Of a DNA stretch of 64,000 nt, positions 1,656-55,783 are shown one piece after another. The translations under genes were made by a program, and so were the position numbers. The first letter of the stretch is position 1; every line of letters starts with the position of its first letter. The notes beneath the pieces are model-generated. The model did no database searches, had not been told where the DNA came from, and saw only the letters and a program-made list of their open reading frames with translations. Source of the stretch: Zygaena filipendulae (Eukaryota > Arthropoda > Insecta > Lepidoptera > Zygaenidae); assembly GCA_907165275.2 (NCBI GenBank), contig OU015655.1:3732501-3796500 (forward strand), read 5' to 3'.

Positions 1656-1718
1656 CTAAGAACAATAACAGTAGCATAGCACAAATTAACTAGACTTATG
1701 TCTATACATTCTTCTGAG
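1656..1718. mobile_element. Palindromic mini-insertion D1 (63 bp)
   Basis: Longest member of the CTCAGAAG family. It starts CTAAGAACAATAAC and ends CATTCTTCTGAG, with about 40 bp of unrelated DNA between the arms. Flanks TAGTAGAC (1648-1655) and CAGTAGAC (1719-1726) match at 7 of 8 positions, as expected for an old 8-bp target duplication. Confidence 0.55.
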
Positions 1719-1777
1719 CAGTAGACTGTTTCTTTCATTCTTTGCTGTATGGGCTTTAGTACTGTACAGTGTACGCC

Positions 1778-2688
1778 CAGTGTTGCCAACCCTCAAAAAT
1801 ATTTACCCCTAAAAGTTAAATCAAAAACCCCTAAATCCCCCTAAATACAATAATATTATTAAAAAAAAAAAACTTAATAGTAAATAGCAGCGCCAAGATT
1901 TTTGCCTATTTTCGAAATCATTAAGGTGAAATTATGGGTCTTAAAAAAAACAATTTAATCAAAAGCAATTTTTTTTTACCACGAATCTTTTTTTTCGTAA
2001 TTTCAAATTGAAGATTTATTATCAAAATGCTAATTATTAAATTCTTAATTTTTCTTCATTATGACTTTCCTATTGATCGTAGTAAAAGTATCGTAGTAAA
2101 AGTATCGAACGTAGTAAACCTTAATAGGATGCTCTGTGGGATGTTGCATATAACGACAAACTCCTGACGAACGCCCCATTTTATCTTATCTATTACACTG
2201 TTTCCGCATACTGTTCATCACTAATGAATCACTATTATGCAAATTTCACCATACTCACACAATATTAATAACGATAAAGTAAAACTAAAAATAAAACTGA
2301 CGTCCATTTCTGCTCAAATCCCGCCAAAAGTTCTAAGCATAGACAACGTAACCACAGTCGCGTCCTAACTCCTATCCTATTATATTAATACCTATTCTTT
2401 TTATTATGTTTATGGTAAACACTGGTAATAAGAAAACTAGATGTCGCTAAGCCGTTAGATCAACAAATAAACATGATTTGCTAGATAGCTTTACTTCAGG
2501 CCCTATATTTTTATAACTCTATTTTTCTTGATGAAAAAAATATAAGAAATAAAAATTTGAAAAAAATATTAAATATAAGTCAAAAAACCCCCAAAAATAC
2601 CCCTAAAAATATTATACCCCTAAAAAAATCCCATCGCATTCATTTTCCCCCTAAATCTAGGGGGAAAACCCCTAAGTTGGCAACACTG
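1778..2688. mobile_element. Non-autonomous hAT-type element, 911 bp
   Basis: Ends are CAGTGTTGCCAAC and GTTGGCAACACTG, a perfect 13-bp terminal inverted repeat with the CAGTG start usual for hAT elements. The 8-bp duplications TGTACGCC lie at 1770-1777 and 2689-2696. The interior is AT-rich with runs of CCCCTAAA near both ends (imperfect inverted repeats) and has no transposase frame, so this is a MITE-like derivative. Confidence 0.88.
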
Positions 2689-2750
2689 TGTACGCCACAT
2701 TCATTTTTTGACACGGAATGCATGACGTTTGTACGTTTATAGTTTATGGA

Positions 2751-2779
2751 CTCAGAACAATAACAGTTATTCTTCTGAG
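2751..2779. mobile_element. Palindromic mini-insertion D2 (29 bp)
   Basis: Starts CTCAGAACAATAACAG and ends TTATTCTTCTGAG; the arms meet with almost no interior. Perfect 8-bp flanking duplication TTTATGGA at 2743-2750 and 2780-2787. Confidence 0.82.
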
Positions 2780-3195
2780 TTTATGGATAATAGCCAAGGT
2801 GCACAGTGGCCTAATTTTCGTAATAAAATCTGAGCGATATCGCTGCGATTCAGCTCTCAAAACGGGTTTTGCTATTCTCGTAACAAAAATTTTCTTAAAG
2901 TAGAAACGATCCTATCGAAGTCCGATTGACGAATCGTTTTAGCGTAAATTCGTATTCGCGTATGAAAGTCGAACGTAAATCGAATTTGAACTTTTCGCTT
3001 TCGATATTCTGCAAATTTTTGACGTATTTGCTCGATAGATTCGAAACGATTAGATGTCAAAATTTGCGACTGGGGAGTCGTTGAACAAAAGTTCCTTTTT
3101 TAGTAGTTGTGCATTTTTGAAAGTGGGTTTTGCGTTTTATTTACAAGTGAAATTGAAATTATCTTTCATAAATTATACCTATATTATATTTTAAC

Positions 3196-5331: not shown

Positions 5332-5362
5332 GTTCTCTTCCTTTCTCTTCTGAGGTTCTCTT
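5332..5362. mobile_element. Partial palindromic mini-insertion D3 (remnant)
   Basis: Direct repeats GTTCTCTT at 5332-5339 and 5355-5362 flank 15 bp ending CTCTTCTGAG, which looks like one arm of the CTCAGAAG family. Confidence 0.45.
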
Positions 5363-6555: not shown

Positions 6556-6612
6556 AAATCCTAACATTGGTTCAAGGGAGTCATATCACCACAAACTACT
6601 TAGAGATACTAC

Positions 6613-6639
6613 CTCAGAAGAATAACTTATTCTTCTGAG
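6613..6639. mobile_element. Palindromic mini-insertion D4 (27 bp)
   Basis: Starts CTCAGAAGAATAAC and ends TTATTCTTCTGAG, with no unique interior. Perfect 8-bp duplication GATACTAC at 6605-6612 and 6640-6647. It sits in the left arm of a larger inverted repeat (about 6587-6612 against 6668-6693); the right arm lacks it. Confidence 0.87.
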
Positions 6640-6832
6640 GATACTACCGTCATATCACAAATCACAATGGTAGTTTCTCTAAGTAGTTTGTGACTTGTGT
6701 CACAATGATAGGTAAGTATGTAAAAACACAACAAAATCTTCTTTTAAGTCATTTATCTCATCTACACGAAAATAACTGAACTGAACTCTGAACTCCATTT
6801 TTGAGTCCCGCCAAAAACTCCAAGGTACAGTC

Positions 6833-6859: not shown

Positions 6860-7792
6860 GGTACAGTCTACATAATATTTAAGGAACTTCTAAATAAATT
6901 GAGATCATATTATCATCTAATCTAATCATATTATAATCTAATACTTATCTAAATATCATTTGTAAATTATTAATTTTATAAAGTGTAACATTTTATAGGA
7001 AGTAATTTTAGATACCTATATGACACGTTGGGTTCTGTGTTCTGTAGTGAACAGTCAGGAGGTAGGTAGGGTCATTACGCTGGATCGCGGCCCTGCGTTA
7101 TTTCGTGGCCTTTTAGAGCTCCAACCGCCTAAATATTACAATAATAAGAATTCTATCCCATCCATCCCAACGTGTTATGGCTCTTTAAAAAGTAGGATAG
7201 TTGCAAAATGTAATGCTTATTCAAATTGGTCGGTTTTCCTAATCCATGTGCCCGAAATAAATCATTCATTTTACTAGCCGCGCTACCAGCGCACAAACGT
7301 ACGCAAAGCTGCGCAAAAAATAGCAAACAGGTCCCGCTTTAAAAGTAAGTATTTAAAGTTTACGATTACTTATTACTATTGTGATTGTTTTTGGGTGATC
7401 ATAGCTATTTGCTTTACTTAATTTTGCATTTAATTTGCGAGTTAATTACTTTAATACCAGTTTTATTTGGTGGCCGCCAACCAACACAAGGATTTTTTAG
7501 TAAAGTTGGTATACGGCCGGGGTGGCCGCAGTTCTAACTCACTGGGTGAGATTAGTTTGTCTTCTTTTCTATTATTAAAGTAAATAACCTTTAGTTTTGT
7601 GCAACATTTTTTATTGTTGGGGTTGGCTTAAATGCTATGGTTAGTTCACGGCCGCCAAAATATAATTTAATACGGATTTATAGCTATAATGTGGCCGTAT
7701 ACTAACACATGCTTACAAAACAAATCAGGTTTGCGGCCGTCTGGCAATCATATGAAAGAAGACGGCCGTAATCTGACCTGAGAATCTGACTA

Positions 7793-10360: not shown

Positions 10361-10364
10361 TTTA

Positions 10365-11262: not shown

Positions 11263-14200
11263 CTGGAAATGGTAAAAAATAGGTACCTACACATTACGTA
11301 ACACAAAAATTAATGACCTAACCTATTACAGACATATCCGGAAAAGGAGAAGGCTCGCGATGTTTGTTTTTTATGAGTGTCACGCGATAATTATGTCCAT
11401 CAGTTATGAACCGAAATTTCTATATCATTTTGTAATTAAAATTTACATGCACGACAATCAATCACTTTAATAAAAATAATAATCCACTTCACAACACACA
11501 GATCTACTCGATCCCACAGTAAGCTTTTATTAGCTTGTGTCGTGGAAACCAAGCAAACGTGGTATGTACTACACATAATTACATACGTGAGCGGCAGAAT
11601 TCGCCTTATGTGTAAGCACCCTCGAAATACGTACTAGTGTATGTCTGCAGTTTAGTGCGCGGGTATTTCAAGTTTTTTTGGAACTCTCTGATGTAGAATA
11701 GAATAGAATAGAATAAAATTTATTTCTGCAAAACACACAAGAATAATAAACAAACAGATATAAAAAGCACTCTGATGCGAGTTTAAAGGATCATAATGTC
11801 GTCAATAACATGCATAACTGTTATTATGCAAATAACATTATTATTTTGTTTAAAAGTCCTCACCAGCTAGCATACTGACTACAGACAACAGTATTTTTTC
11901 AACACTCTGGACAGGTGACCACCTCTCAGCACTACTCTCATATCCCATAGGATCATCACCCGGTGCATGAAGTATTGATATGCAAACACGTCCATCTGCA
12001 TATACTGAAACAGAAAGAGAACATGGAAAATTACTTGTATACTATACCTGCTTATTTTATTCATTTTCATTAATACAGTTTCCATTCACATTTACCCACA
12101 ATGCAATACTGTATTGCCAATAGAGTATTTAAACAACGGGAAGGAATGCACTACAATACTTATTATCAAACAGACAAGAATACGTACTTGGCAAATGCCG
12201 CATCATAACGTACGCATCTCGTACTATTGTCAAAAGGGGATCAATCATAGGCTATTTGACAAATTTTTTTTTAGTCCGTCTTGTAGATTAACAAAAAATA
12301 TTGGAAACGTATTTTTTCTTTTTTTACGTAAACAAAAATAACGGCGATACATGGAGTTGAACTTTCGCGTGACGTCACTAACCAGTGCAGTTTGTATGGC
12401 GGCTTGTAGTGGTAATAGTCAAGAGCCCCGCACCCTAAACTTTAATGCTCTTTATTTTATCTCTGTGTATGTTCATTTATGCTACTGCTCCACCTGCGTT
12501 AACGTTAACGTTGATGCTAATATCCAACTACGCGTTAATTAAGGCATTAAAATACGTGTTGGCTACATTTAGTTTGCAACGTGCCGTTAATTTCTAGTGA
12601 AATAACGAGTTAACTCAAAATGGAGGTCGAAGCTTCAAATAGCTGTTTTTTTTCAATGGAGGTAGAAGCAGATGTAATTTTTGCATCAATGAGTGTTTTA
12701 AATTATTATATGCATTTATGCAATTTAAGAAAGAAAGATAAACCCACAAAGAAAGAGAAGGCGCTAATGTAGCCAACACCGCTTAGTGCGCTAAATAACG
12801 CGCTAAAACCCTTTGATGTGTCCAAAAAACCGACACCCGAGCTATCACTTAACGTTTAAAGTCATTAATGCCCTTAGTAAGTTAACCCGTTAAAATGTTG
12901 GCCATATTTACGTAATGCCTTATTTAGCGTACTAATTTACACGTTAACACGCTGGTGGAGCAGTAGCATTATTTGAAAAATAAAAAAATACGTGTCTAAT
13001 GATTTTTAATTTTCTAAAGACGGACTTATCAGAATTTTTCATTTTCAAAAGTCGTCAACATCCCTATTACGGTAGTATTGACTGTAGTAACAATACCACA
13101 TTTATATACGTACTAAAAAGCAATGATTTAGAATGATAGCGTTATTTTCATTATTGGTTCTCCTATGAATATTTTTTTTCTTTGTTCTTGCTTGCTCTGT
13201 TGCACACCCAGAGAAGCATTGCGATTCAAATCTTTACTATTTTATAAATGCGAATGTGAGTACCAAAATAATTTTTTCGTGAACTCTGGAATTAATGCAG
13301 GCAAACTTTCATTAAATTTAAAATACACATTGTCAGAAGTACAGAAAAGAAAAATTGATACTTTTTATGCCAGAATTCCTGCAGGGACTCCGAAATGATC
13401 GCAGGTGAAACCGCGGGATATAGCTAGTATTAAATATAAAGAAATAAACTTTGTCATTTTGGATGTAGAGGATAATCTCCAGAACTACTGAACCAATTCT
13501 TAAATTTCTTTTATTGATAGGCAGTCACAGGACTCAATCGACTCAGTTAAAATCCAGGGGGAATGACAAATTTATAAAATACTTACTGTTGGGATGGAAT
13601 ATTTCACATATGAACTGCATTTTTGGTGGACTTAATGGATAATCAGGAGGAAATATTAACTTAGCTGGAAATATGCCACCCTCAAAACATGTACCTTCAG
13701 GTCCTCTGTAACAATGAAGGTATAAACAATTTCAATACATATTTTAGATACTACTGTTGTATAGGGTAGTATAACAAAATTATTTTAGTGTCTAATAGTT
13801 CAAGCAATACCAACATCTATACTCCCATACTTTTACTATAAAAAAGTAAAATTTTTAAGGCTAAAGCCACACTACAAAGAGGGTTGCTTATTATTAAGAG
13901 CCAAGAAACTTCGTGAGTAGCTTATCTTAGCAAACATACATATTGCATACTATTGCAGCTGGCCACACTACAAGCCTAGCTAGTTGGTAGTGTGGCTACC
14001 TGCCATAGTATGCAATAGGGATGTTGACAACTATTGAAAATCAAAATTTTAATTAGTCCGTCTTTTAGAAAATTAAAAATCATTAGACACGTATTTTTTT
14101 ATTTTTCAAATAAATGAAAATACACAGAGATAAAGCGCATTAAAGTTTAGGGTGGGGGCTCGTGACGTCACTTACCACTACAAGCCGCCATACAAACTGC

Positions 14201-15434: not shown

Positions 15435-15931
15435 AATGCTTAGAAGTATTGTTTAACTATATTATTTACTACTTATAAAACTAAAAATTATAAATTTATT
15501 AACGCTTATTTTTGAGAACCTAGGTACATCTACGTGAAAATCCACTATTTCCACAAAATGAAATTACAAATTAGTTGACCTGACACTTGACAGCTGACCT
15601 GACACTTGACAGTTGACCTGACACTTGACAGTTGACAGCCATGGTCATTGGTAATTTTTTTGTTACATTCACCCCATTCACCCTCAGAAGAATTCCTTTG
15701 TCACATCACATCAAAGAAAATAATACTCTCGCACACATGTAGTATCTCTGAGGTCTAATACCTACCTACATGGATAAAAAAAATCTTTTAGTTTTTCGAA
15801 GTTAGTTGTCAGGTTGGTGACAAAAATTTTCTTCGCTTATTATTTTGTTTTTGTGTTTATTAGTTAAGTTATCTAAGTATCAACTTTCTGCACTTTATAA
15901 AAAACGTGTAAATATTAAAACGGAAGAAACC
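15435..15931. promoter_or_regulatory. Shared UBE2G2/SMC4 bidirectional promoter region
   Basis: The start codons of UBE2G2 (minus) and SMC4 (plus) are 497 bp apart, so both promoters and leaders must lie here. It contains the 19-bp tandem repeat at 15573-15638 and an inverted CCAAT-like TCATTGG near 15643. No TATA box is clear. Confidence 0.7.
15573..15638. repeat. 19-bp tandem repeat, about 3.5 copies
   Basis: Unit AGTTGACCTGACACTTGAC at 15573, 15592 and 15611, with a partial fourth at 15630; the second unit has one change (AGCTGACC). Confidence 0.92.
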
Positions 15932-19100: not shown

Positions 19101-22100
19101 ATTTAATTGGTCCATGGTATAACCAATTTTTCACAGTAAAGATTCAATTGCAAAAAAAAAACCGCACCAACTTATTTATACTCCTATTTTAAATGAGAGT
19201 GGTGTTGGTGTAGTTATTTAGTTTTTTTAATCTGAATACGTAGTTTAAGTTTTTATCGTAGAAATAACATAGTGGTCAGCCATTGTAATTCCATCCAGCC
19301 GCTGTTTCAGTGTCGGAGACATGGCTTGTCCCTGGTTCTCGCTTCCGAGTGCCGGGATATTGTTGCCTCCAGGACGTCAGGAGCGATGGTTACACTTGGA
19401 GTGCGCTCCATCGACTTTTCCCAAATCTCCCTCCTCCCTCATAGTCAGGATATCAATGCTGTAGCGCCTCGAGCTCTTGGGCTTGCTATTCTTTCTGTCT
19501 ACATCCCCCACCCTAGTCCTATTCTTATATCTCTCTCTGTCCTCTTCAATCTTCCTAAGCCCACAGTAATTCTAGGTAACTTTAACTGTCATCACACTTG
19601 GACCTTCTGGACATCCCTACAAGGAGCGTCGGACGCGGTTAGAATCTCATGAGTGTACCTGGCCTTTCCTTTTGTCCCCCCTTATCCTCCCCCATCTTCT
19701 GGTGGGTTGTTTCCAGCTCGAATGGTAGTGACAATTTCCCTATAATTGTTAAAGTGTCCGGCCCCACCTGCTCTAGCTTCCCTCATCAAGCATGGATCCA
19801 GCCTTATGGGCACAACCCTAATTGAAATAGGTAGGCTAGGGTTATATCAAATGGATTGGTAAAACAAAAAACCAATGATCCATGCGTGATTTGGAACGCG
19901 ATGTACCTTTGCTTTCAAGCTGTAAAAGTGTCATCATAATCGGTCTAGTAGTTAGATGTTGTGATGATATACAAGCAAAACAAATTTTCGGATGGCCTTT
20001 TTTACGAGCTGGATTCGTGCCTGCCCCTCATAAACCTCTCCTAAAATACAAACTTGAAGAGAACATTCTTCAAATTCTTATCAAATTCTAATCTTGAATG
20101 CAATTATATGAAATTCGTTAAAACCCTCCTTGATTCGACCGATTCTCACCTCCCTCTAAAATTGGCATTAAAATAGGAAACACTAGCATTAAAAATAGAG
20201 GCGACCCCTTCGGGACTCTAAGGCGCCGACCCCACTGCACGCGGTCTGGCGGTTAGAGTTTCGAGTTCCGTGTTCGGCGTTCACACTTGTGCACACTGCG
20301 AGCGGTCTAGTTTGGAGTTCCGTAGGTAGGTAAAATTGTCTCTGTCCATTTCTTGGACAATTTATGCCCAAGCATTTGCCTTTTTTGACGATTTTTGCAG
20401 TCCTCGTCGCTCAAATCATAAAGAAAAAGTCTCTCTCACTAACTCTATAAAATGTTTGATGTCGTTGGACATCGTGCTAGAGCAAAAAAATTTGACAAAA
20501 ATGGAACTCCGACAGATCGCGCATTCACTTTGACTGTCGCGGTCTGTGTGTGTTGGAGTCTAAACCACCACATAGATTAGAGTGTACTCGCACAACTCGA
20601 ATCTCTGACCGCTAGATCGCGCGCAGTGAGGTCAGCGGCTACAATGGTACAACCATAGCAAAAAAAAATCTAAATCTATGGGTACAACATAGATAGCCGG
20701 AAAACGGTACCTACAGTGAGAGTAGGTATATCATTGGAAAACTATATCTATTACCATCAATCCGCTGCCAAATCGAGGAGACTACTCTCAAAAAAGAAAA
20801 AGAAAGTTTGATCTGATTTTGTGAATAGTTATCCCCCATTCCCTTTCTCTTTTGCTTGTAAAACTTAAAAGATTTAGCGGGTCCTCAGAAGAATAACTAA
20901 GCTAGTTATTCTTCTGAGAGCGGGTCATTCGTTTGTCGTCATCTAATAATAAGTCTTCGTAGTTCAATGACTTAATTCTCATAATTAGAAAAGTTTGTTT
21001 AGGTCTAAAGAACTTGAACTATTGGTGGTCCTTGCGTGGATTCCAGGCCCCAGTGAAATTCGAGGCCGTAAAATAGCGAACGCATGCGCCAAGACTGCAA
21101 CAGAGAGAGGCTCCGCATATTGTAATTGCATCTACGTTCATGATCTGTGTACGCAATCCTCCTTGGAACTTCTACGTAGACTATGGACTGGCTCAAACAT
21201 GGCAATATACAGCCCGCTTTTAGCCCGGTGACACCATACAAAGTAAAGACCTCCAGCTTGTATAGACTACGTAACTGTCAGAAACTACCGGCTACCACCA
21301 AACTTTCGCGGGGCATGAGGAGGCATAAAATTGGCGGGAGGCAGAGAATGTCGCTTCTTTACGTAGTAATATTCTGTATTCTTTGCCGCTATTCCCAGTA
21401 CCCCATGAATCTTTATATTCCGCACTATTAATAAAAATACAGTGTCAACTTTTTTGTCGTCTTCGTTTGGGCCACTCGTGGGCCACTCTTGTACCCCTAT
21501 CATCTAAATAGGTACTGTAACAAATGTTGTCTCAGGTTCGCAATTTCGTACTCCTTGCTTGCAAACACGGCAAATAAGAACTGACTGTAGATTCTGCTTA
21601 CAACTTTTATTTAGTTATTATGTTATCATGTAAAAGACTTGTAAGTCGTAATGATAATAAAGATTCCTTAAACACAACTTTGCAAGGATATTTTGTATCT
21701 ACTGGTAAACGTAATTTCACAACTCTCTTCAGCCCAAGCTCCAATTTTTCTTCTTATCCGTCAAAATCCACTTCTCTCTTTTTAAAATAAAAAATGACGA
21801 ACCAAAACAAAATAATAATAAAAAAGGTTGATATTGTAGCAGAATGCTACAGTACGTATAAAATCAGGGTGAGGGATCACTCTCTCTGTGAATGTGGCAT
21901 GGGCGAAGGAACTGTTTAGTTGTCCTAAAGTAGTTGGTACTAAAAATATGTTTTACCTCTCCCGCCTTCCTCAACATCCCCTTTGTGTTATAACACTTAT
22001 AATATACCTAATATATAATATACCTTCGCTAACTATATGTACTAACTTTTGTGTTGTCGTTTTTTTTAAGGGAAACTCATTTCCACTGAACAAACTTGAT

Positions 22101-28100: not shown

Positions 28101-31100
28101 CTCGCTGATGAATGAGAAGAAGCAGGGCCGCCTGCCCGGGATATTCGGCAGATTGGTGCGTCTGTCCGAGATACATTCCTACGAGATTATTATCTTTTCA
28201 CCAAAGCCCCTTGTTTTGTATGTAATCAAAATTCTATATGGACGCAGATAAGCAATAACATGTTAACCCACAAAATTAAGTTATTGATTCAGAACCATTT
28301 ATTGAGAGTTAGGGAACGTTTTTTTAATTATGTGTTTACCTTATTACATTGCTTAAATATGTAACTAAATATTGAACATAAAAAATGTTGACACAAAATA
28401 GCGCTCCTACTTTTAAAACACGATTTACTCAAAATTCCTCCAGTGTGGGTTAACACACTATTGCTTATCTATGTCCATATAGTCCTTCAGTTAGATATTA
28501 GGTACAAAAAATATAGACAAATATAGAAAAAATAATAATTTTCCAAGTCAGTCCAGTCGTGTTCGAGTAATGGTGTAACAAACATAAAAAAACATATAGT
28601 CGAATTGAGAACCTCCTATTTTGAAGTCGGTTAAGAATAAGAAAACTCATGTGTCTGCTTCTGTAACAACTAACATTTACGGCCGCACTCAGAGTCGACT
28701 TTAATAATTACTTAGTTAAGTATAGATTTTTAAAACAAAACTGCCGCAATCAGACAAGTTTAATAAATTAATACAAAATGTCGACGAGCATCGATAAAAT
28801 GGCTCGATAAAATTTTATCGTGTTGCGCATCTAAGCCCCGCTGGGTCTGACATACAGCTCAGAACAATAACAGTAGTTATTCTTCTGAGTTTAACAGTTT
28901 GACTTGGATTGACGCAGTAGGTCGCCATGTCTACACGCTAATTAAGAGTTTCCGGGTTCGAATCCCGGTGAGGGTGGACTTAGTGTGATTAACATCGAGT
29001 TCCTTTTCAGTCTGGGCGTGGGTCATAACATCTACTAGCTGTTCCTCGCGGTTTTGCCCGCCTTAATTTTGGAGTTCCTGCGGGAATTCCGGGACAAAAG
29101 TACCCTATGTCCGTCTTTGTGCCCCTGACAATGTGTATTCAAAATTTCATGATGATCGATTTAAGCTGTGAAAGCGTAATATACAAACAAACAAACTCAG
29201 ATTCGCATTTATAATCGTAAGGATATTGAAAAATATATTATTATATGTATGTAATAAATAATACGTAGTATATACCATGTGTGGCTTGGTTTCCACGACA
29301 CAAGCTTATATAAGCTTAGTGTGGGATCAAGTAGATCTGTTTGTTGTGAAGCGTTGTCCTTAATATAATATTGTAAATGCGAAGTGAGGGAAAGCGCAAC
29401 AAACAAACAAACGTGTATGCAAAATTTCATGAAATTGTCAGAGGTACATAAAAGGACATCGAGTACTTTTTATCCCAGAATTGCCAAACGAAATAATGCA
29501 GGTGAGACCGCATAACAGCTTATGTATAATCATTGTAATTTGGGTGTATACAGGGTGACCTCGGCGGGATAGATTCGAAGTACGACGTGGCGATATCGAC
29601 GTGCTGCGGCGCGCTCGACTACATAGCGGTGGACACGTTGGACACGGCGCAGGCGTGCGTGGACTATCTGAAGGCGAACGACATCGGACGCGCCACGTTC
29701 ATAGCGCTCGACAAACAGGAGCATCTGAAGCGACACTACGAGAACAAAACTGATTAGTGAGTTGCGAGGAAGTGGCAAAGAAAGGCGTTACGGTGCTAGC
29801 CACAGAACAGAAAATAACAGATATAGAAGGGACATCAACTTAGTTTTATATGAAAACAGATGAAAATCAGTGTCGCCGGGTGATTTTCGCACACACAACT
29901 ATTCATCACGCTCTAAAATTATGTTTTTACTTAGTCGCTGTTTTCAAAATTCAGTGTTGGGAATATTGTTGTGAATATACTTGGTATAGCAGCAAGGGAA
30001 GTTTTCGGCAAGTTCAAGCATTTGCTCTAACTTCCTTTGCAACGGCGGCGCGCCTGCCCCGCCTACATGTCCTCTCTAGTTAATTTATTTGCTCTGTGGT
30101 GCTAGCTGTATCAGCTTCGATCGCAACTGTTGATTGCGGTCATTTATACGTCCTGCCCCCCCTAGCCGAATTGACATTCTACAATCGTTAATGTATAAAA
30201 AACTGAGTAACGAATCTTCAGATCAAAAGTTTTGATTGGCTGACTAAGTGACTTGACGATACGTTACTTACGGCCGCACTCACAGTCGTTTTAATGATTA
30301 CTTAATTTTATGAACATTAATTTAATAAACGTCTCCGAGTGCGCCAATTTTGTTATAAAAAACTTTACTTAAAATTGGCTAGTTGACTAAATTTTGTTTT
30401 TTAGTTCGTCGTGTAGACAAAAAAAAAATTGGACACGTGTTTTTTCTTTCTTTACGTAATCAAAAAATAACGGTGATACATTGAGTTGAAATTTCCCGTG
30501 ACCTCATAACCCGGTTCAGTCTTATACCGGACTTACGGGGCTTATACCGGATAATGACGTCACGAGTCCCCCACCCTTAACTTTAATGGGCTTTATCTAT
30601 GTTTATTTTCATTAATTTAAAAAAAAAAACGAAAAATATGTGTTTAATTTTTTTATTTTCCAACTAACGGACTAATTAGAATTTTTATTTTCACACCCCG
30701 GAATATATACAATTAAGTAGCGTAGTCGTAAGGGGTCATCCATAAAGTACGTCACACTAATTTCGTGATTTTGACCCCTCCCTCCTCCCTGCTTTTGTAT
30801 GCGTTAACGATTGTAGAATGTCAATTTAGTCAAGGGGGCTGTTCTACTTCGGGCGTACCTACTTCAAAAGTTAACCCGCCCCCCCGTCCCTCCCCCCGTC
30901 CCCCGGCAGTCCCGAGGGCGTGCCGCGTCTGTTCGACCTGGTGCGGGTACGCGACGCGCGCGTGCTGCCCGCGTTCTACTACGCGCTGCGCGACACGCTC
31001 GTCGCCGCGGACCTGGCGCAGGCGACGCGCATCGCGTACGGCCGCCCCCGCTACCGGGTGGTCACGCTCAACGGGGAAGTCATCGAGATATCCGGTAATA

Positions 31101-34100: not shown

Positions 34101-37100
34101 CTCCATACCCCTGACAACGTGCATGCCAAATTTCATCTAAATCCGTTTAGCTGTTTTGCGTGATTGAGTAACAAACTTCACACTTTCACATTTGTAATAT
34201 TAGTAGGATTATAATGAGGTAAAATTTGTGAATGTTGAGTTTGTGATCTACTGATCCGATTTTGAAAACCTTTCACTTATAGGAAGCTACGGGAGTCCTA
34301 AGTGACATAGGGTAACTCCCACGGAAACTCGGAAATTAGCGCAGGTGAAAACGCGGGGGACAGCTAGTATAAAATTGTTTTATAACTAGTGATAGTAACT
34401 ACAGAAAGGTACTTGTCAGCATTCAGCCCCCTTGGCTAAGTTGACAATCTTTCACCGTTATCGCTACAGAAAACTTAGGAATTTACCGTTACGTCACGTG
34501 ATCACGAAAAATCGACGACGACGGCTAAGGGGGTAGAATGGGGATGTGGACTACTTTTGAAAATCAAAATTCAAATTAGTCCGTCAGTTAGAAAATAAAA
34601 AAACAATAGACACCTCTTTTTTGCTTTTTCAAATAAATTAAAATATACAGAGATAAAGCGCATCAAAGTTTAGGGTGAGGGGGTCGTGACGTCACTAACC
34701 CCTAAAACCGCCATATAAACTGTCAGAATAGTGACGTCACGCGAAATTTCAACTCAATATATCACCGTTATTTTTTGATTACGTAAAAAAAGAAAAATAC
34801 GTGTCCAATATTTTTTAATAATCTACAAGACGGACTAAAAAATAAAAATTAGTCAACATGCCTATTGCCAGCTTCGGGTTGCTTTCGGTGGAAATGTGCC
34901 GATGACACTCGCTGTATGACCTCGTTGAATGACTACGGAAAACCTCAGCACCAGTTCTTACACAGGTCGGGGGTCGCCGGAGGGATCCCTTTCTCTAGCT
35001 TATAGCTGTAGTTTCGGGATTTCCCTAGTGAACTCTTTTGGGTTAATACGAAAAAGAATCTGTAATTATTATAATTTCTTTTTAGATACACGCTTTCCTT
35101 TTTTGGAATAAACCCCTTTTATGTTTAATAGTAAAAAGTATCCGGCCACTTTTAACAAATCTACAATGATCCATTGCCCTGTTGCGACTTGAAAGGTAGA
35201 CAAACAAGTACTTCCAAAACTATTATATCGCATTTAGGAACGCAAAGAGATTGAGTGACAAGATAGCTCAAATCGAGGCAGATTTGGAAGAGACAACGAA
35301 GAATCTGGAAAACTTGTCGACACAGAAGAAACAGTTGATTTTGGAGAGTACGCAGCTGCAGAAAGAGTTAGACGAGGTATACACACACGCATTCATGCCT
35401 GCATGCACACATAAGTATGCACGCATCAAATAAAGACGTCCGCTTGCAAAAAGTTCACTGATAGCCAATAGTTATTTTCACCTCAATAGCCCAAAAAGCG
35501 CGCCCTTATCGCGATCAAAACCAATAGTAACTTGGTAATTATTTTATGTAAGTACCCCCTCTTACACACACTATAACGACCAAGAAAATACGCACACAAG
35601 TGACGCAAACTTTATCTATATCCTGATTGACTGATGGATCAAGGCACTGCCTAAACCGCTGATCGTAGAGATCTGAAACTCGGAGGATGTATTCTTTCTA
35701 TATTGTAGACATCCTATAAGAAAGGATTTTCCGAAATTCAACCCCCAAGAGGATGAAAGAGGGATGAAAAGTTTGTATGGAACTTCGAAATTATCGCGGC
35801 TGAAACCGCGCGAGGCAGCTAGTTTACTGATATGATAAAGAGCTAAATTTTGTGAGTTTGGAACGTGGGTAATCTCTAAAGTCTAGACCTACTGGATCGA
35901 TTTTTGAAATTTTTGTACTCATAGGAAGCGACGGTAGTCCTGAGTGAGGGTACTTTTTATTCCGAAATTCTGACGGGAACTCCAAAATTACCGTTAGTGA
36001 AACCGCGAGGTACAGCTAGTATGATATAATTTATCAATACACAGCCGGGTATAAGCCGTGCTCTCTGACATTTTTTTTCAGAGGGGATCGTTCGCCAAAA
36101 AACAAATACAATTAGGGGTCGCAAAATATTTTTAAACACAAAAGGGGTTATTAAATATTTTGAAAAACACTGTTCTGTGTAGGTAGAGAGATAATTTTTT
36201 TAAAACTATACCTATATTTTACCATTTGTTTCACGTTCATAGTTCGAAGAGAACACAAACGAGAGCGTGGGCGAGTTCTCGGGCTTGAGGCAAGAGATCA
36301 GCGAGCTTCAGGCAAGAAAGAACAAGATAAAGGGCGAGCGGATCGACGTGAACAACGCCGTCGTTACGATAGAGAAGATGATACAGAGCTGCAGGGACAA
36401 GGTGTCCATTTGGGAGCGAGACGTAAGAGACGCCAACAAACTAACAACAATAGCGAATATGCATGTATCTTTTTTTACTTGTTATGTCATTCTACATCTG
36501 ACATAGTAAAAAAATTAGTTAAAAATATTTATTTCCGAGAGTATTTATGAGTTTTTTGGTGGGAACCAAAGATGGCGGTTTGGTCATTTATTTTCATGTC
36601 GATAAAAAATGGTTAAAAATAGATTTTTTTGTTTAATAAGGTGTTAAATATCTCTTTAATAGTGTGAGTGCGGCGACACTATGCGGCAACTGAGGATGAA
36701 TCTATGTGCGTAACGATTTTGGACACAGATAAGCAATAACATGTTAACCCACAAAACTAAGTTATTGATACAGAACAATTTATTGAGAGTTAGGGAACGT
36801 TTTTTAATTATGTGTTTATCTTATTACATTGTTTAAATATGTAAAAAAATGTTGAACATAAAAAATGTTGACACAAAATGGCGCTGTAATTTTAAAATAC
36901 GATTTACTCAAAATTTCTCCAGTGTGGGTTAACACGCTATTGCTTATCTATATCCATTTTAACGGTTGTGCGTGTGCGTGCGTATGCCCGATGGAGGGGC
37001 GCGGCATTTTAGCTTAGATAAGCTCTACGCGCGTGTTGTGCGTGTGCGCAGCTGTCGGCGCTGCAGCTGGAGGACCCCGGGCTGGAGGGCGTGGCGGGCG

Positions 37101-40100
37101 TGGCGCGGCCCGCGCCGCTGGCGGAGCACTCCGCCGCCGAGCTGCACGCGGCGTCCGTGGAGGAGCTGCGCGCGCGCCTCGCCGCGCAGCGCGGCCGGCT
37201 CGCGGGCGCCGCGCCCAACCTGCAAGCGATACAGGCGAGCTGGCGTGTAACGAGGCGGCTGTATATGCCATGCCTCTTTATAATAATAATAATAGTAAAA
37301 TAATTGGGTATTCTCCAGGGTATGAAAATCAAAATTCTAATTATTAATCCGTCAGTTAGAAAATAAAAAAAATAATAAACGGGTATTTTTTGCTTTTTCA
37401 AATTAATGAAAATAAACATAGATAAAGCGCATTCAAGTTTAGGGTGGGGGACTCATGACGTCAATATTCAGTATAAGCTCCATACAAACTGCACCGGGTT
37501 GTGACGTCACGCGAAATTTCAACTCAAAGTATCATTATTTTTTGATTACGTAAAACATGAAAAAATGTCCAATATTTTTTACTAATCTACACGACGAACT
37601 ACAAAAAAAAAATTGTCCAGTAGCCAATTCTTTATTTCAGATTCAAAGATCCCGTGACAATTTTCACGTCAGGTGCTGACCTGCTGAATTTTCTTGCAAA
37701 CATTTTGATTTCATGTTTATGATATGCTGCCTCATTTCTATTACTTTTGTTTTTGTAACAAATTGTGTTTTTATAATATTCTTATGTCATTCTCGGGGAA
37801 AAGCTTGAGTATCTCGTCGAACTGAACCTACTCGCAAAGTTTTAGCCTGTTATTAGTCACTGAGAAAACAAGGCGTGGGCTGCCGTACTACTACTAGACT
37901 CGCCGCTACGTCGCGGTGATATTCTTTAGGTTTTACTGCCCCCGCAGTAATTCCGGGATAAGAAGTACCCTATGATACTCAGGCACACTGTAGCATTCTG
38001 TTGGTAAATGAATTTTCTAAATCGGTTCAATAGATCCAGAGATTACCCCGTACAACGTCACAATCTCAAAAAACTTTTCCTCTTTATAATATTAGTATAG
38101 ATTATTCTTTATTATTTTCCGCCAGGACTACAAAACGAAAGAGGAGTTGTATTTGAAACGTTCGGCGGAGTTGGACCAGATTACCACCAAGAGGAACGAG
38201 ACGTGGAACCTACAAGACCAGCTCAAGAAGAAACGCACCAACGAGTTCTTGTGCGGTAAACACTACACCTCATTTAAGACAACCCACGTACTCCAGTTAA
38301 GGAGTCCGGTCACACTAACGCCACTCGCAAATTAAAATGTCTAAGATTATTATATATCAACTAACTGTTCCCAGCGGTTTCACTCTCGTTAATTGCGGAG
38401 TTCCTACGGGAACTCCGTGATAAAAATACTCTATGTCATTCTCCACACTCCTGACGACGTGTCACGTGTGTGTAAAATTTCATGATGATCGGTTTAACCG
38501 TTGAGGAGGGAAAGCGTTTCAAGCGTTTTTAACACGCATTTACTAGCTTCATTTGTGACTAATAAACAATTTAAATATAAAAAAATCGTAGAAATCAATT
38601 TTAACCTATTTCTGATTGGCATATCGAAATGAAAATTCCTATTTATACGTAGTAGATAACAAAACTATGATTTGGTATATTGGAGATGATCTGACGATGA
38701 TGATGGACAGTGGAACTCTTCGATGGCTACTAGTAAACAAAAAGTGTGTTTTTTAAGTATTTTTAAAATACGTGCTTCGTAGTTTTAAATGAAACTATCG
38801 CTCTATGTTGTCCAGGCTTCAACACGATCGCAGCTAAACTGAGAGAGATGTACCGCATGATAACGCTCGGTGGCGACGCTGAGCTGGAATTGGTGGACTC
38901 GTTAGACGCCTTCGCCGAGGGGATCACGTTCAGGTGACTTGTACATTATACAGGGTGACTGATTACTCGAGTGCAGCCGAACCGGGGCGGAAACTTGATA
39001 GTGGCGCCTCTTTGTCCAGCGTTTACTGTAAAAAAACTCACAAATATGTTCACTTGTGGTTGGTTGTGGCTGTACGAGCCGAATGCTCATACAGCATATT
39101 TTTCCTCTATATGTATATGCGTTAGTAATAAGTATTTTAGTCGGTCGTAACCAAACATTGGCGACGCGATAACATGTCATTTAGACATACGGTGTTACTC
39201 AGATTACGCCTATGGAGGGTAGAAGTAAGGAAGACCATCTCAGTGTATTAAAAAGTGTCCGTTGAAAGGGAGCAAATTAAGGTGGCGCCATAGTAGCAAG
39301 TGGAAGAATTTTAAAAAGAGCGCCACAAACTATTATAGTAGGTTACTAAAATAAAAAAGGAAAGAAGAATTTCCATATAAGTTTTTTATTTAGATATGCA
39401 AAAGCATGGGAAAAAAGCACTGAACCCGGGTGCCCCTTATGCTCACATCCACATATTATTATTATACCGATATGAATATAAAATAGCTATCAAAAATTAT
39501 GTTTATGAGTTTGTGAAAAGCTAAGAAATAATACTTCTGACAAGCAGTTTTTTTTATCTCAATTTTTATTGTAATCTGTCTTTGACATTCCACAATAGTT
39601 TAATATCTCCATCGGCAGGCTATGCAGGCATGCAAGGACCAACACCAGCGCAGCGTCATCCCAATATTTTTTTTTCCTTATTTTCCATCAGGTCTTTGTT
39701 CAAATATAAATGTATTTTTCTTAATGCCCACTACCATTTGATTTAGATGCAAACTTATTCATATGCATACTTATCTCTTTTTGTATTTTGAGATACTTTC
39801 CCTTATTTCTTCTCTCACAGTTTTTATCTTTAGAGCATGGCGTGTGACGAGCAGTTATCTAAGTTTTTTTTTCGCAGCGTGCGTCCTCCGAGCAAGTCGT
39901 GGAAGAACATCTCTCACCTGAGCGGCGGCGAGAAGACGCTGTCGTCGCTGGCGCTGGTGTTCGCGCTGCACTACTACAAGCCGTCGCCGCTGTACATCAT
40001 GGACGAGATCGACGCCGCGCTCGACTTCAAGAACGTGTCCATCGTCGCCAATTATATCAAGGTGGGGCCGTACCTGCAACGTGGAACACAGCCAGTTGTT

Positions 40101-41044: not shown

Positions 41045-42066
41045 TTAGGCGGCATTTGAGCAAAATGGACGTCAGTTTTATTTTATCAGGTCATTATTTA
41101 GGTAAAATTGGGAAGAATTGTTTCCAGAAGTCCCGGAAAAGCATCGAAATACATCACACCAATGCATTTCAATGTAAACTACTTCAGAAAATAAAGACAT
41201 CTGAACTGGCTGTATGAATTTAGATTCTTTTGCCTTCTCCAAAAAGAGTAAATAAATTGAACGAGGTAAGGTGCTCTCAGAAGAAGAATAACTAGCATAT
41301 TCTTCTGAGGTGCTCTCAGTCAATCTCTCTGTTCATCTCTTTATCTATTTCTTCAATTATGGCGAAACGCCAATGACAATGTTAGATTGTTCCCCAAGTT
41401 AAAACATAGCTCTTTTGAAAGCCAGGTTCCTGCTCAGGGTCCAAAATAGACTCGGACCAATGAGTGGTCGATAGCGTGACATGACAATGAGATGGATGAC
41501 AGTATACCTACTGGACTGCGTTCCGTTTTAAAGAGTAACCAGTACAGCGAAATATAAAGGAACGGCTTCCCAGGATATTAAATTGACGTCATACCTTACA
41601 CTGCTATCAGTAATACCGGAACATACCTAACATTCCGTCTTGCGTCTGCAAACGCTGTGTTTTTTTAAAAATATTCCTGTATTCTCTTTGGTGTCAGGAC
41701 TTTTGGCGGCATTTGAGCAAAATGGATGTCAGTTTCATGTCTTTGTTTTACAAATTAGTTTATCGTGGTTAATATTGTATAAGCGTGATGAAATTTGTAA
41801 AATAGTGCAGCATCCATTAGCGATGAACAGTGCGTGGAAACAGGGAAATAAGATGAAATGGGATGTTAGCTGGGAGGTTATCGTTTTACTATATTACTTC
41901 CTACAGAGCATCCCAATTGTCCAATTGTGTAGAATTGCTTCCAGAAGTCCCGGTAATGCATCGAAATGCATCTCACATATTATGTATTTCAATGTAAATA
42001 ACCTCTAAAAAAAACAAATGTACTGGCTGTATGGACTTACTTCCTTTGCCTCCCCCGTAAGGGGTA
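41045..42066. repeat. Pair of diverged direct repeats between SMC4 and the zinc-finger gene
   Basis: Blocks GGCGGCATTTGAGCAAAATG and CCAGAAGTCCCGG occur at about 41048/41125 and 41705/41942. The second copy is longer. No coding sequence recognised. Confidence 0.65.
41276..41309. mobile_element. Palindromic mini-insertion D7 (34 bp)
   Basis: Starts CTCAGAAGAAGAATAACT and ends ATATTCTTCTGAG. The direct repeat AGGTGCTCT (41269-41277 and 41308-41316) overlaps the terminal CT/AG, so the exact element edge is ambiguous. Confidence 0.7.
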
Positions 42067-46633: not shown

Positions 46634-46641
46634 TACTAGAT

Positions 46642-49840: not shown

Positions 49841-50620
49841 TTTCATTACTCATACTCGGAAAGTAGGTCTGAAGTTGCCTGAGAAGCGGGTTGAAAGTAG
49901 CCCTTTTCAGCCCTAGGGAGAATCGCTTTCAACTGACAACTGTCAAATTATTAAAAAAAAACTAGGTCTATTTTCACATTTCTATTGAACCATGTTTCAA
50001 CTTTCTATACAGCCAGCGCGATGTAAAATTGAAATAACGTAAAGTTTAAGTAGGTATTAATTAAAATAAAATTCACTCACTTTTTCTTAAGCTAATTCCC
50101 ATTTATATTTTTTTATTTTCTTTAATTAATACTTAATAATTAAAGAAAATATTTTTTTTAGGTCGCCACAATGTAAATAAAAAATACTGGCTGAATAGCT
50201 AGCCGGCCAAAGAAAAAGAAATAGGTGTGAAAGTGTCAAGCGACTATCCGATCTTCACTCATTTTTTCTTTAGCTAATTCCTATTTTTACTTTGACTTTC
50301 CTTGCATTCGTAATGAAAAGCACATTTCATTACTCATACTCGGAAAGTAGGTCTGAAGTTGCCTGAGAAGCGGGTTGAAAGTAACACTTTTCAGCCCTAG
50401 GGAGAATCGCTTTCAACTGACAGCTGGATACTGCAGAAACTCAAGTTTTTTTTTATGTCATAGGGGGCATACTTACTGGCCAGTAGAACACCTAATGGTT
50501 GATTTATGTAAAATAAAATTCACTAATTTTTTTCTTTAGCTAATTCCTATTTTTATTTTGACTTTCCTTGCATTCGTAATGAAAAGCACAGTGTTATCCT
50601 CGGGAGAAAGACTTATTCAG
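49841..50620. repeat. Local segmental duplication of two 70-100 bp blocks
   Basis: A 99-bp block with ACTCGGAAAGTAGGTCTGAA and CAGCCCTAGGGAGAATCGCT occurs at 49844-49942 and 50326-50424, almost identical. A second block with TTTCCTTGCATTCGTAATGA occurs at about 50256-50322 and 50519-50590. Confidence 0.85.
50115..50150. repeat. 36-bp palindrome with possible 8-bp duplication
   Basis: ATTTTCTTTAATTA mirrored by TAATTAAAGAAAAT, flanked by ATTTTTTT on both sides (50107-50114, 50151-50158). Low complexity weakens the case. Confidence 0.5.
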
Positions 50621-51589: not shown

Positions 51590-51758
51590 ATCCTCGCATA
51601 CGTTTACTCAATCACGCAAAAATGGCGGAACGGATTTGGATGAAATTTGACGTGCACGTTGTCAGGGGTACAGAGGAGCACATAGGGTACTTTTTATCCC
51701 GGGATTCATGCGGGAACTCCGAAATTATTACGGGTGAAACCGCGAGGCACAGCTAGTC
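51590..51758 (+). mobile_element. Lep1-type Helitron-like copy, 5'-truncated
   Basis: CTTATCCTCGCATACGTTTA through AACCGCGAGGCACAGCTAGT. Confidence 0.8.
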
Positions 51759-54700
51759 ATCATCAATAATATAATAATTAATGATCGTCAGCGTGGCCAA
51801 AATATGTCAAAAGGTTAAAAGCTTTCGAGGCCGGCCATGTATTGGAGGTTGAAGAGATGAGGATGAGGAGGAAGATCTAATGAAAAACATGAGGCTGTGA
51901 AAACTGGTAAAATTGTCGCACAAACTAAAATATCCAATGTTTACGATAAGAAAATAATCCTTATCAAATATTTTATTTGATAAATTTGAAAATACCTAAA
52001 AAGGATGAAAAAAGAGAATTTTTGATATTTTTACTAAATTTTTTCACCCAACTTTACAATACCTCTTATATCTCGGAAACTAGATGCCGAGAACTTTTAC
52101 CTTTTAGCTTGGACGCCCACATACGTAAAATATATTAAAAAAACAATTCTTTTGTGTTACAGAATTCAGGAACTATTGAAGCGATTGAGCTCACAGGTCA
52201 AGTTTGTACTCATGTAAAGTTCTCTTTTAGGAGTTTCCAAGAGAATCCCGAAGTTCACGTGAATATTAATTAACCAGGGATTTGCCGAGGTAAATGTTAG
52301 ATACATAATTTCATATTTCGTAGAGTGAAATAAAATTTGAAAAAATAATTAAATTGGTAGGAAACATAAGTTAAGTATACCTAATACCTACCTACTCGTA
52401 GGAACCTATTTTGTGCAGCATTTGTGCACTTGTATATTAGAGTCTTAATAAATTACCTACCTACGTAAATCCATAGATAACTACAGAAATAAATCTATTC
52501 GTTGGAGCCCGCGGTGTCTGTTTCATATTAAAACATTGTTTATATATTCGTAGCACTTCTCAGTTGCGCCGTAGCCCCGCTGTGGGCTTTTTCACATGTA
52601 GTCTTATCGTTAAATCTGCAATATTTAAAACGCAGGCGGATTTTAGTCGATACAAACGTATACCTATTCCTCTTTTTCCATTTTCCACCCAAGAAAATTA
52701 CAGTGCAACAATTTTTTTTACCTTATTTACAATCTATGTAGGTGAATATATATGCACATCATTTATCCAGGCTCTAAAATAGGTTGTGGGCACAGCCACC
52801 CGAAAATCGGTCAAGTGTGAGTCGGCCTATTGACTCGCTTACTATGTACTTATTTATCAATGCATTGTATTCCTTGTCCGGTTAAATTAGACATTTCAAC
52901 CAACCAACAATAATTCACATAGCGCTGAAAATTATGACAGACGTTAGGTATATACGTACACTAGTACAAATGTATTTTTTAAATATATCCCTATAAATAT
53001 ATAAACCCTAGCCCATCGACCTCAAGCAGGGTTGTGGGTATGCCCACCATACCCATAAGGCTGGATCCGCGCCTGCAGCTATCATACCATCCAAAAAAAT
53101 GTAAGTAGGTATAGGTACCTACCTAAGTTGATAACAAAAAAATACGTAAATGGAATAAAATTATCATCATAAATGGAATAAATTTCAAAATACTATGAAT
53201 AATAATATTTTTTGTATAATAATATAATTTATATTAAAGTTTGTTTGTTTTAATACACCTTATCAGTTATCATCGACAAGCTCCATAATTTTCACGCGGT
53301 TTCTGAAAACGGTACAATTTCGTGTCCCGAAGTTCTTTTTGGGGACAATGGGACAGATAACCGAAAAAAGGGACGGTACTGTTCCAAAAGGGATGATCCT
53401 GTTCAAAACGGGACGTATGGTCACGTTACGTGTGAATTAAATATTTTCGAGCTCGCACCCAGCACCGTTCGTACCTACTTACTGTGTGATCCTGCGCACC
53501 GTCCGACGACGGACGCAACGCACATGGCCACGTCGTCATAAAATATAATTTATTGCCATGTTCTGTTGGTTGCATGCGTGTACGCCTTTTGCATTGCTGT
53601 TACGTATTTCGAACGTCGATGGATACCTAAAATGCACGTAATATTGGTGAAGGAAAAGCTCCGTTTTCCTCTTACGTGAAGGATTTTAGATACCTATCTA
53701 CTAGGTACTTAAAAAAAAACTAAAAAAAAGCATCCACAAAAAGAGGGAATGCTGTCAAAAGTAATATACCATGGAAGATTCAGTAATTACAAAAACAAAG
53801 ATAAGTTATTTAAGACTAAATTTCTTATTAGGTACATCATACGGTTTATGGTTTCTTAGTTGCCAATTTGACCTTTGAGCATAAATCTATGATTTTTTTA
53901 TGTCTATATAGTCTTAATAATGTACAAAGTACAAATATAAATTTTTCTATGAATCTTTAAAATTAACCTCGTCTCTTAAGTTTAGAAGAAATAAAATAAA
54001 CATTTTGCAGTAGGTAAATAAACAATGTCACCTACAAGTTTTCCGCTGTCTTATAGTCTCTAATCATGTTTTCATATTATTGTCATAAACGCGGACAAAG
54101 CCACTCGAATGGGGTCGAGTAATACAAGATAATGTGCAAATTACAACACTTTACTTAACTTGGCCTGACACACTATCGTACACTTGGAGCTGCTGAATCG
54201 TATAGATATCAATCTGCACACAGAGGCAAATCATGCACTTAAGTTCTATATATGAAGTAAGTAGGTAGGTACACTACACCTCCAAATTGTTTCTCTTGAA
54301 GCTGACTCTACAATATTATTCTCTACTTTATTACGTAGATACCTAGGTAGATACGTCTGAATGTTTTGCTGATTATGTGAATGAATGTTTATGACAAGTG
54401 AATTGTAATATTTTGTTATTGCATGATCCGTGGCCGTGGCATGGCTGTTGTTCATTAAAAAATATTAGTATAAAGGTAGGTACAGATTATTTTGTGTTAA
54501 GTATTATAAAATTGGCGTTCAAAAGTTGACATCGAATGGTCAGTTTCATGAATGATTTGGCATTAAATTAAGTTTAAGAAGAAGAAGTAAAGAAGAAGAA
54601 GTATCTGCACAATGGCGTTTCAGTATTTGTACACAGCCCGCGATACGTCGGTAATTTTTGCGTCGAAACAAAATTTATAATCAAGTTTCAACTAATAGAT

Positions 54701-55419
54701 AAACATCACTACCTTTAGTTAGGTAGTATATTAGCATTAGTAGATAAGTATTGTGAACTATAGTCAAAGTTAAGAAAATTTAAAACTGTTAGATGCGATT
54801 CTTTGCTAATGAGTACCTACACGTTACAACAGTTTGGATTGTTCACGTAGGTAAGTAGGTATATTTATTTCCACTTTGGATTCCTCGTCATGCTGCACAC
54901 TTATAAGTGTTAAATTATTGCAAGTATACGATTACCAACACACGTTGTATACCTATACCAGATCGTTCATACCTATAGATCTGTCAAAATATTTCTTAGA
55001 ATTGACAATAGCCGAAATTGAGCTGTGATAGCATATTAATGCCTAAACTACATAAAGCCGTATGAAGACTAATTAGTTGGAAACAATTAACCATGTTATG
55101 ATATAGGATTGTTTATCTTACGACTACAAAGTTGAAACTAATAAGTAGGTACATAGATGGATGAAAGAGAGAACATGTGTTCATAGTAACGAGAAATTAA
55201 AAAAATGAATGCAAAACATTCGACACTAGGTAATTAAAGGTAGGTAGATATAAAAATCATAAAAGATTTTTTAAGTGAGTTTCTTTCAGTGCGATGCGAC
55301 TAAAATTTTATGATTATTGAGGGTTCGTTTTTAGAATACGCGAATTATGCAAAAGCGACGAAAAATATGTACCTACTTAGAAAGGTACTTGGACCACAGA
55401 GAGTAAAAGAGAGAACTAT
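51759..55419. other. No gene seen; 3.7 kb AT-rich intergenic DNA
   Basis: Only short tracts stand out: a GAAGAAGAAGTAAAGAAGAA run near 54575 and many GGTAGGTA pieces. No supported exon or RNA gene. Confidence 0.4.
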
Positions 55420-55783
55420 CACAGAACAGAAAATAACAGATAGAAGGGACATCAACTTAGTTTAGTATGAAAGCAGATGAAAACCAGTGTCGCTGGGTGA
55501 TTTTCCACACAAAACTATTCATCATGCACTAAAATATTCATTAACGTAAAGAATGTAGTAAACGCTTTATGATTGTGTTTTTACCTAGTCACTGTTTTCA
55601 AAATTCACAGTTTTGGGAATATTGTGGTAAGTAAATATACTTGGTATGGCCTCAGACGTCTGAGGGTATGGCAGCAAAAGAAGTTGTGGGTAAGTTAGAC
55701 CACTTGCTCTAACTTCCTTTGCAACGGCGGTGGCGCGCCTGCCTCGCCTACATGTCCTCTTTAGTTATTTTATTTCTTCTGTG
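55420..55783. mobile_element. hAT-type MITE family B, copy 2 (364 bp)
   Basis: Ends CACAGAACAGAAAA and TTTCTTCTGTG; 8-bp duplication AGAACTAT at 55412-55419 and 55784-55791. Longer than copy 1 because of palindrome D8 and a second insertion near 55530-55580. Confidence 0.87.
55651..55664. mobile_element. Palindromic mini-insertion D8 (14 bp)
   Basis: CTCAGACGTCTGAG, a perfect palindrome, flanked by GGTATGGC at 55643-55650 and 55665-55672. The paralogous repeat at 29983-29990 has a single GGTATAGC and no palindrome, that is, the empty site. Confidence 0.85.

What the first reader, a model, noticed from the sequence alone, without database searches (positions are those of the whole stretch)
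1656..55664. Family D: minute palindromic insertions with hAT-like 8-bp target duplications
Eight sites (1656-1718, 2751-2779, partial 5332-5362, 6613-6639, 20884-20918, 28858-28889, 41276-41309, 55651-55664) carry CTCAGAAGAATAAC-type arms joined back to back, with 0 to about 40 bp between them. Four have perfect 8-bp direct repeats of unrelated sequence on each side (TTTATGGA, GATACTAC, AGCGGGTC, GGTATGGC). The duplication length is that of hAT transposons, yet these units have no interior. They look like terminal-repeat-only insertions, possibly two transposon ends joined to each other, which I do not know as a described class.
Basis: partly seen in the sequence, partly recalled or inferred. 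Interest (0 to 1): 0.88.

Follow-up and report, generated by a model that had tools for sequence, protein, structure and literature searches.

The report
Excision scars of P-type transposons
The tiny palindromes are best read as scars left where copies of a P-element-like jumping gene were cut out and the broken ends were joined again, so they record past transposon losses and are not a new kind of mobile element.

Summary
CTCAGA...TCTGAG palindromes lie at the stated sites; four have exact 8-bp flanking repeats, and two more (5340, 41279) have them on closer reading.

In the whole genome (366 Mb) a strict palindrome pattern has 1,091 strand matches, control 0. Of 40 places fetched with flanks, 28 have exact 8-bp repeats and 34 at most one mismatch; 1,560 cross-pairs gave 0 and 3.

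They are best explained as excision footprints of a P-superfamily transposon. Arms that reach 20 nt stop by 23 nt in 76 of 93 rows, inside a ~27-nt terminal repeat. Junctions are diverse: 51 kinds among 88, half with 1-3 nt microhomology. Drosophila P excision leaves the same anatomy with 17-nt tails (PMC2895639 passages). A P family of this genome with its own transposase ORF leaves like scars: 9 places, 7 with exact repeats. Unoccupied paralogous sites exist.

hAT is not supported, because transposon ends are retained. The parent element was not found. Unusual are the scale (about 20-30 scars per surviving interior left end, an estimate) and the longer arms.

The parts
1648..1726 (.). footprint 1656-1718 (63 bp) with flanking repeat TAGTAGAC / CAGTAGAC (1 mismatch); contains a 20-bp copy (1680-1699) of the adjacent flank 1628-1647, i.e. 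filler
2743..2787 (.). footprint 2751-2779 (29 bp), target duplication TTTATGGA on both sides; left end C-type, right end G-type, joined at AGT microhomology
5332..5362 (.). degraded footprint 5340-5354 (15 bp) between two GTTCTCTT copies; only the right arm is recognisable
6605..6647 (.). footprint 6613-6639 (27 bp), target duplication GATACTAC; a junction found 7 times among 88 listed genome places
20876..20926 (.). footprint 20884-20918 (35 bp), target duplication AGCGGGTC, two inserted bases between two G-type arms
28858..28889 (.). footprint 28858-28889 (32 bp), C-type and G-type arms; the 8-bp flanks do not match (4 of 8 differ)
41271..41317 (.). footprint 41276-41309 (34 bp), target duplication GTGCTCTC at 41271-41278 and 41310-41317, overlapping the arm by 3 bases
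55643..55672 (.). footprint 55651-55664 (14 bp, both arms cut back to 6 nt), target duplication GGTATGGC; unoccupied paralogues at window 29927-30057 (83%) and L034 961-1097 (81%), both with gaps elsewhere in the alignment
7770..7790 (.). doubtful one-arm footprint: CTGAG (7778-7782) between two AATCTGAC copies; not above chance

Best explanation
Each unit is the repaired scar of a cut-and-paste transposon of the P superfamily. (1) An element with ~27-nt imperfect terminal repeats (left CTCAGAAGAATAACTAAAGCATAGAAGG, right CTCAGAACAATAACAGTAGCATAGAAGC) inserted and duplicated 8 bp of target. (2) A P-type transposase later cut it out, leaving about 21-23 nt of each end as a tail on the chromosome. 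(3) The two tails were joined by end joining through 1-3 nt microhomology, bluntly, or with trimming and filler (probably by polymerase theta), leaving repeat + arm + arm + repeat. Shown by sequence: the anatomy, the flanking repeats, the arm cut-off of the G-type end, the junction diversity, unoccupied paralogous sites, and like scars for a family that carries a P transposase ORF. Inferred: the excision event itself, which transposase moved this family, the strand polarity of the tails, and polymerase theta.
For: 8-bp duplications: 28 of 40 exact, 34 of 40 with <=1 mismatch, against 0 and 3 of 1,560 cross-pairs (20 of the 40 were chosen for shared junctions); earlier loci: 16 of 31 pairs exact, 20 with <=1, some pairs nested. 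Arm cut-off: of 93 rows that begin with the first 20 nt of the G-type end, 13 stop at 20, 32 at 21, 26 at 22, 5 at 23, 2 at 24-25, and 15 run 27 nt or more into element interior. Interior-bearing ends: 48 places with <=3 mismatches to the 28-nt end, 30 with <=1, control 0. Of 8 such places fetched, 4 are short two-ended elements (123, 191, 104, 61 bp) with exact duplications, one has its duplication copy 131 bp on, 3 showed no second end. Junctions: 51 kinds among 88, 37 seen once; 44 with 1-3 nt microhomology, 17 blunt, 27 with extra bases, on a 24-nt arm model. Nine identical 33-bp scars have nine different flanks, 6 with exact duplications. P transposases: 27 PF12017 matches, 0 of 14 control genomes; all 7 ORFs scanned have TNP-like RNase H and GTP-binding domains, THAP in 2 of 7; L049 matches solved P transposase 6p5a, E 4.3e-25. 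Positive control: L049 (3,603 bp, duplication GTTTCTAC, 902-aa open frame) has 9 palindromic scars, 7 with exact and 2 with one-mismatch duplications. Drosophila: 8-bp target + up to 17-nt tails with microhomology or inserts (PMC2895639 passages); cut 17 bp inside (PMC7776569 passages). Unoccupied site: L087 against L044 (96.6%) and L064 (95.8%), no gaps.
Against: No transposase gene with CTCAGAAGAATAAC ends was found beside 23 of the 27 PF12017 matches (4 not looked at; some seen only to about 1.5 kb; scattered matches with up to 3 mismatches were not element ends). The cut-off was measured for one end type only; the C-type search did not complete. Most arms are shorter: the longest arm is 14-19 nt in 64 of 88 places, with 20 places at 17 nt, the Drosophila length. 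A 23-nt tail with terminal TA microhomology predicts 12 products, of which only the two common 33-mers (11 and 5 copies) were seen among 88. Identity of the C-type end with the Drosophila tail is not significant (8 of 17, reached by 14% of shuffles); only the shared run AATAACA in register is rare in shuffles (0.2%). 12 of 40 places lack an exact duplication. Scars far outnumber surviving ends, whereas sister-chromatid repair would be expected to restore elements.
Confidence: 0.93

Rival explanations
1. The units are themselves mobile micro-elements: terminal-repeat-only insertions that transpose as 27-35 bp palindromes using a transposase in trans.
For: Some units recur identically at many sites (33-mer 11 of 88, 27-mer 7 of 88), most with their own 8-bp duplication (16 of 20 exact in the set chosen for shared junctions).
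Against: 51 kinds of junction among 88, 37 of them seen once; single-arm scars such as L041 and L043 and a 14-bp unit; the L049 family shows a similar series. Ends reported as needed for P transposition are far longer (138 and 216 bp in Drosophila; under 100 bp in Anopheles P-MITEs; PMC1562414 passages).
Confidence: 0.04
2. Excision footprints or joined ends of a hAT transposon.
For: hAT transposons also make 8-bp duplications (recalled).
Against: Terminal-repeat sequence is retained up to a sharp limit of about 23 nt, which hAT excision as recalled does not do; tips match P families of the same genome; a P family leaves like scars. No hAT gene search was run.
Confidence: 0.02
3. Internal-deletion products in place: insertion, then loss of the interior by incomplete gap repair or ordinary deletion, without two clean cuts inside the terminal repeats.
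For: Longer internally deleted copies (61-191 bp with exact duplications) exist, as incomplete gap repair would give.
Against: Among arms of 20 nt or more, 76 of 93 stop at 20-23, 2 at 24-25, and the rest run on into the interior; random deletions would give no such limit. It may explain the minority of longer copies.
Confidence: 0.05

Closest known systems
Drosophila melanogaster P-element excision junctions (PMC2895639, passages read)
   Same: 8-bp target copies flanking two inverted terminal tails joined at microhomologies or with templated inserts, with trimmed forms
   Different: tails of 17 nt there, up to 21-23 nt here; those are engineered events at one site, here many hundreds of natural scars in one genome; different end sequence
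P-MITEs of Anopheles gambiae (PMC1562414, passages read)
   Same: non-autonomous P relatives with 8-bp duplications and P-type ends
   Different: those keep a central region and somewhat under 100 bp of P sequence at each end; the units here have no interior
P elements of this genome (L046, L047, L049/L063)
   Same: CWNAGA tips, 8-bp duplications beginning GT, P transposase domains; the L049 family leaves like scars
   Different: their ends are not CTCAGAAGAATAAC; none is shown to be the parent

Membership tests
P superfamily (scars of) | 8-bp target-site duplication | tested here: met
   28 of 40 exact, 34 of 40 with <=1 mismatch; control 0 and 3 of 1,560
P superfamily (scars of) | terminal inverted repeats of about 27-31 bp with tips like those of known P elements | tested here: met
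   ~27-nt imperfect repeats (right end seen beyond the arm in L067); CWNAGA tips as in four P families of the genome, though L050 and Drosophila P differ
P superfamily (scars of) | long staggered cut inside the terminal repeat, leaving tails at the donor site | tested here: met
   arms reach 21-23 nt and then stop, read from fossils for one end type; the strand polarity cannot be seen
P superfamily (scars of) | P transposase inside an element with the same ends | tested here: inconclusive
   P transposases exist, but none was found with CTCAGAAGAATAAC ends beside 23 of 27 matches
hAT superfamily | 8-bp target-site duplication | tested here: met
   shared with P, so not decisive
hAT superfamily | excision that leaves none of the transposon end at the donor site (recalled) | tested here: not met
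   up to 23 nt of the end retained
hAT superfamily | hAT transposase in an element with these ends | not tested
   no hAT family search was run
MITE | two ends around an interior, repeated as a whole | tested here: not met
   the units have no interior and 51 kinds of junction occur among 88 places; short elements with an interior (61-565 bp) exist separately

The most novel reading that the evidence does not exclude
A P-superfamily lineage, probably of a butterfly or moth, whose transposase cuts 21-23 nt inside its ends (17 nt in Drosophila), and in which excision followed by end joining was the usual fate of insertions, so that the family largely erased itself and survives as many hundreds of scars against a few dozen interior-bearing ends.
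Probability: 0.5. Interest if true: 0.65.

Novelty: new variant of a known kind. Interest (0 to 1): 0.5.

Why it matters
Many hundreds of scars in one genome are a natural record of how P-type double-strand breaks are repaired in a germ line, with microhomology use, trimming and filler readable in bulk. The arm cut-off lets a transposon's cleavage position be read from fossils alone, and suggests that the P stagger length is not fixed at 17 nt. It also warns repeat annotators that a family can be nearly invisible because mostly scars remain.

Tried and rejected
hAT membership: not supported, since ends are retained. Flank-templated filler at 1656 as proof of polymerase theta: weakened, because the same sequence also occurs inside L002 and near L027, so the template is uncertain. 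L028/L058 family as the autonomous parent: set aside; 565-700 bp stretches, no transposase seen. L068 as the start of an autonomous element: set aside, its interior is another repeat with many copies. Palindrome at 25218-25251 as a second scar family: dropped by eye, its flanking repeat belongs to a longer palindromic repeat. Palindrome pattern in viral contigs and genome contigs: 0 matches in each. Other empty-site candidates (L107, window 5340) gave only gapped or weak matches.

Rows dropped: the 88 rows are the 100 listed rows (of 1,091 matches) less 9 other-strand repeats and 3 nested longer rows; they come from contigs C1 and C2 only. The 93 rows are the 100 listed rows (of 246 matches) less 7 identical rows from one array on C6; the closing H of that pattern excludes the common 33-mer, whose arm reads to 23 nt. 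In one search, 20 of the 40 places were chosen for shared junctions and 20 taken in order on C1, passing over those already fetched. The 23 duplications were typed and include the doubtful 7778 site. My first count of 52 junction kinds became 51 when orientation was ignored.
Full report
WHAT IS THERE. The window has seven exact CTCAGA...TCTGAG pairs of 12-80 bp against 0.08 in shuffles; four have exact 8-bp flanking repeats, against 2 of 2,969 pairs for all other hexamer arms. One of the seven (15683-15752) looks like chance. Two more sites gain exact repeats on closer reading (5340 and 41279), 1656 has one mismatch, and 28858 has none.

GENOME SCALE. The window lies in a genome of 365,880,709 bases in 56 contigs. 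It holds a forkhead-domain and a C2H2 zinc-finger ORF. The best match of a P transposase from the same genome is from the butterfly Colias eurytheme (75%), so a lepidopteran is likely but not proven, since P elements can move between species. CTCAGAAGAATAAC occurs 1,818 times (control 1). The strict palindrome has 1,091 strand matches (control 0), an estimated 960 places. The window holds four of these (2751, 6613, 20884, 28858), about 24 times the mean; because the window was chosen after looking, no probability is given.

TARGET DUPLICATIONS. Of 31 pairs in the first loci (some nested), 16 have exact 8-bp repeats and 20 at most one mismatch. Of 40 further places, 28 are exact, 34 within one mismatch and 37 within two; 1,560 cross-pairs gave 0 exact and 3 within one. 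Nine copies of one identical 33-mer sit in nine unrelated flanks, 6 with exact duplications, 1 with one mismatch, 1 with two and 1 with four. The duplications favour G at position 1 and, by symmetrising, C at position 8 (28 of 46; 25 of 56). The duplications of four elements from three P families of this genome begin with GT (GTATTTGG, GTCTCATC, GTTTCTAC, GTACCTAG).

CUT POSITION. Surviving ends show what lies beyond the scars: CTCAGAAGAATAACTAAAGCATAGAAGG on the left, 48 places with up to three mismatches, 30 with at most one, and CTCAGAACAATAACAGTAGCATAGAAGC on the right (seen in L067). Among 93 rows that begin with the first 20 nt, arms stop at 20 (13), 21 (32), 22 (26), 23 (5) and 24-25 (2, one of them L028, an element with a base change there), and 15 continue into the interior. 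This limit inside the terminal repeat is what a staggered cut leaves. In Drosophila the tail is 17 nt. Many scars here are trimmed further: in the 88-place list the longest arm is 14-19 nt in 64, with 20 at 17 nt, so the 21-23 nt limit rests on the longest arms. A 23-nt tail with terminal TA microhomology gives exactly the two common 33-mers (11 and 5 of 88), but 10 other products it predicts were not seen.

REPAIR. Of 88 places, 51 junction sequences differ and 37 occur once; 44 show 1-3 nt microhomology, 17 are blunt and 27 have extra bases. The passages of PMC2895639 seen show the same kinds of junction for the Drosophila P element and tie annealing and templated inserts to polymerase theta. 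Here polymerase theta is inference.

POSITIVE CONTROL. The genome carries P transposases (27 PF12017 matches; 0 of 14 control genomes). The 7 ORFs scanned all have TNP-like RNase H and GTP-binding domains, and 2 of 7 a THAP domain; L049 matches the solved P transposase 6p5a. L049 is a 3,603-bp element with identical 45-nt ends and the duplication GTTTCTAC. Its family leaves nine palindromic scars, 7 with exact and 2 with one-mismatch duplications, arms of 12-31 nt. This ties the anatomy to a P family in this very genome. The matching search for the L046 family did not complete.

EMPTY SITES. Joining the flanks of 63 places and comparing them with the window and the loci then fetched gave unoccupied relatives: L087 against L044 (96.6%) and L064 (95.8%) without gaps; window 55651 against window 29927-30057 (83%) and L034 (81%), with gaps elsewhere; L004 against window 14115-14193 (92%). 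These are paralogous repeat copies, not alleles.

WHAT IS MISSING. No transposase with these ends was found beside 23 of 27 matches. The parent may be lost, lie beyond the flanks seen, or be one of the four not looked at. Scars outnumber interior-bearing left ends by about 20-30 to 1 (estimate), which is surprising if sister-chromatid repair normally restores P elements; why is not known. In the paper library, the listings (the top 9-20 papers of each, by title and start of abstract) showed no report of such a genome-wide set of P scars; longer lists were not seen. For the stagger length one search found three papers: PMC7776569 states 17 nt (passages), one section of PMC10983969 was read and gave no value, the third was not opened.

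VERDICT. Best read as excision scars of a P-superfamily transposon: a known kind of product, with unusual abundance and longer retained arms.

Noticed in passing
window 25218-25251: 34-bp palindrome ATAGACTAGCT...AGCTAGTCTAT flanked by AAATTATT on both sides; the flanking repeat is part of a longer palindromic repeat, so it is probably not a transposon scar.
   Followed up: partly
window 50115-50150: 36-bp AT-rich palindrome ATTTTCTTTAATTA...TAATTAAAGAAAAT with ATTTTTTT on both sides; low complexity.
   Followed up: no
window 1620-1655: TAGTAGAC stands at 1620-1627 and 1648-1655 with a 20-mer between, and again with one change after site 1656-1718, as if the same target had been hit or repaired more than once.
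   Followed up: partly
window 39834-40118: ORF that by eye resembles the C-terminal part of an SMC (condensin) protein; other pieces of the gene seem to lie upstream. No search was run.
   Followed up: no
L030, L036, L067: Stacked scars: several target copies with two footprints side by side, suggesting repeated insertion at the same target.
   Followed up: partly
G000:C6:12313199-12389356: Eight rows with the same scar and flank, most spaced about 12 kb apart: an array of repeated segments carrying a footprint.
   Followed up: no
window 30401-30675 and 34576-34838: Inverted-repeat stretches with TTAGTCCGTC/GACGGACTAA-type ends, apparently another MITE family; some scars in other loci lie beside such copies.
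   Followed up: no
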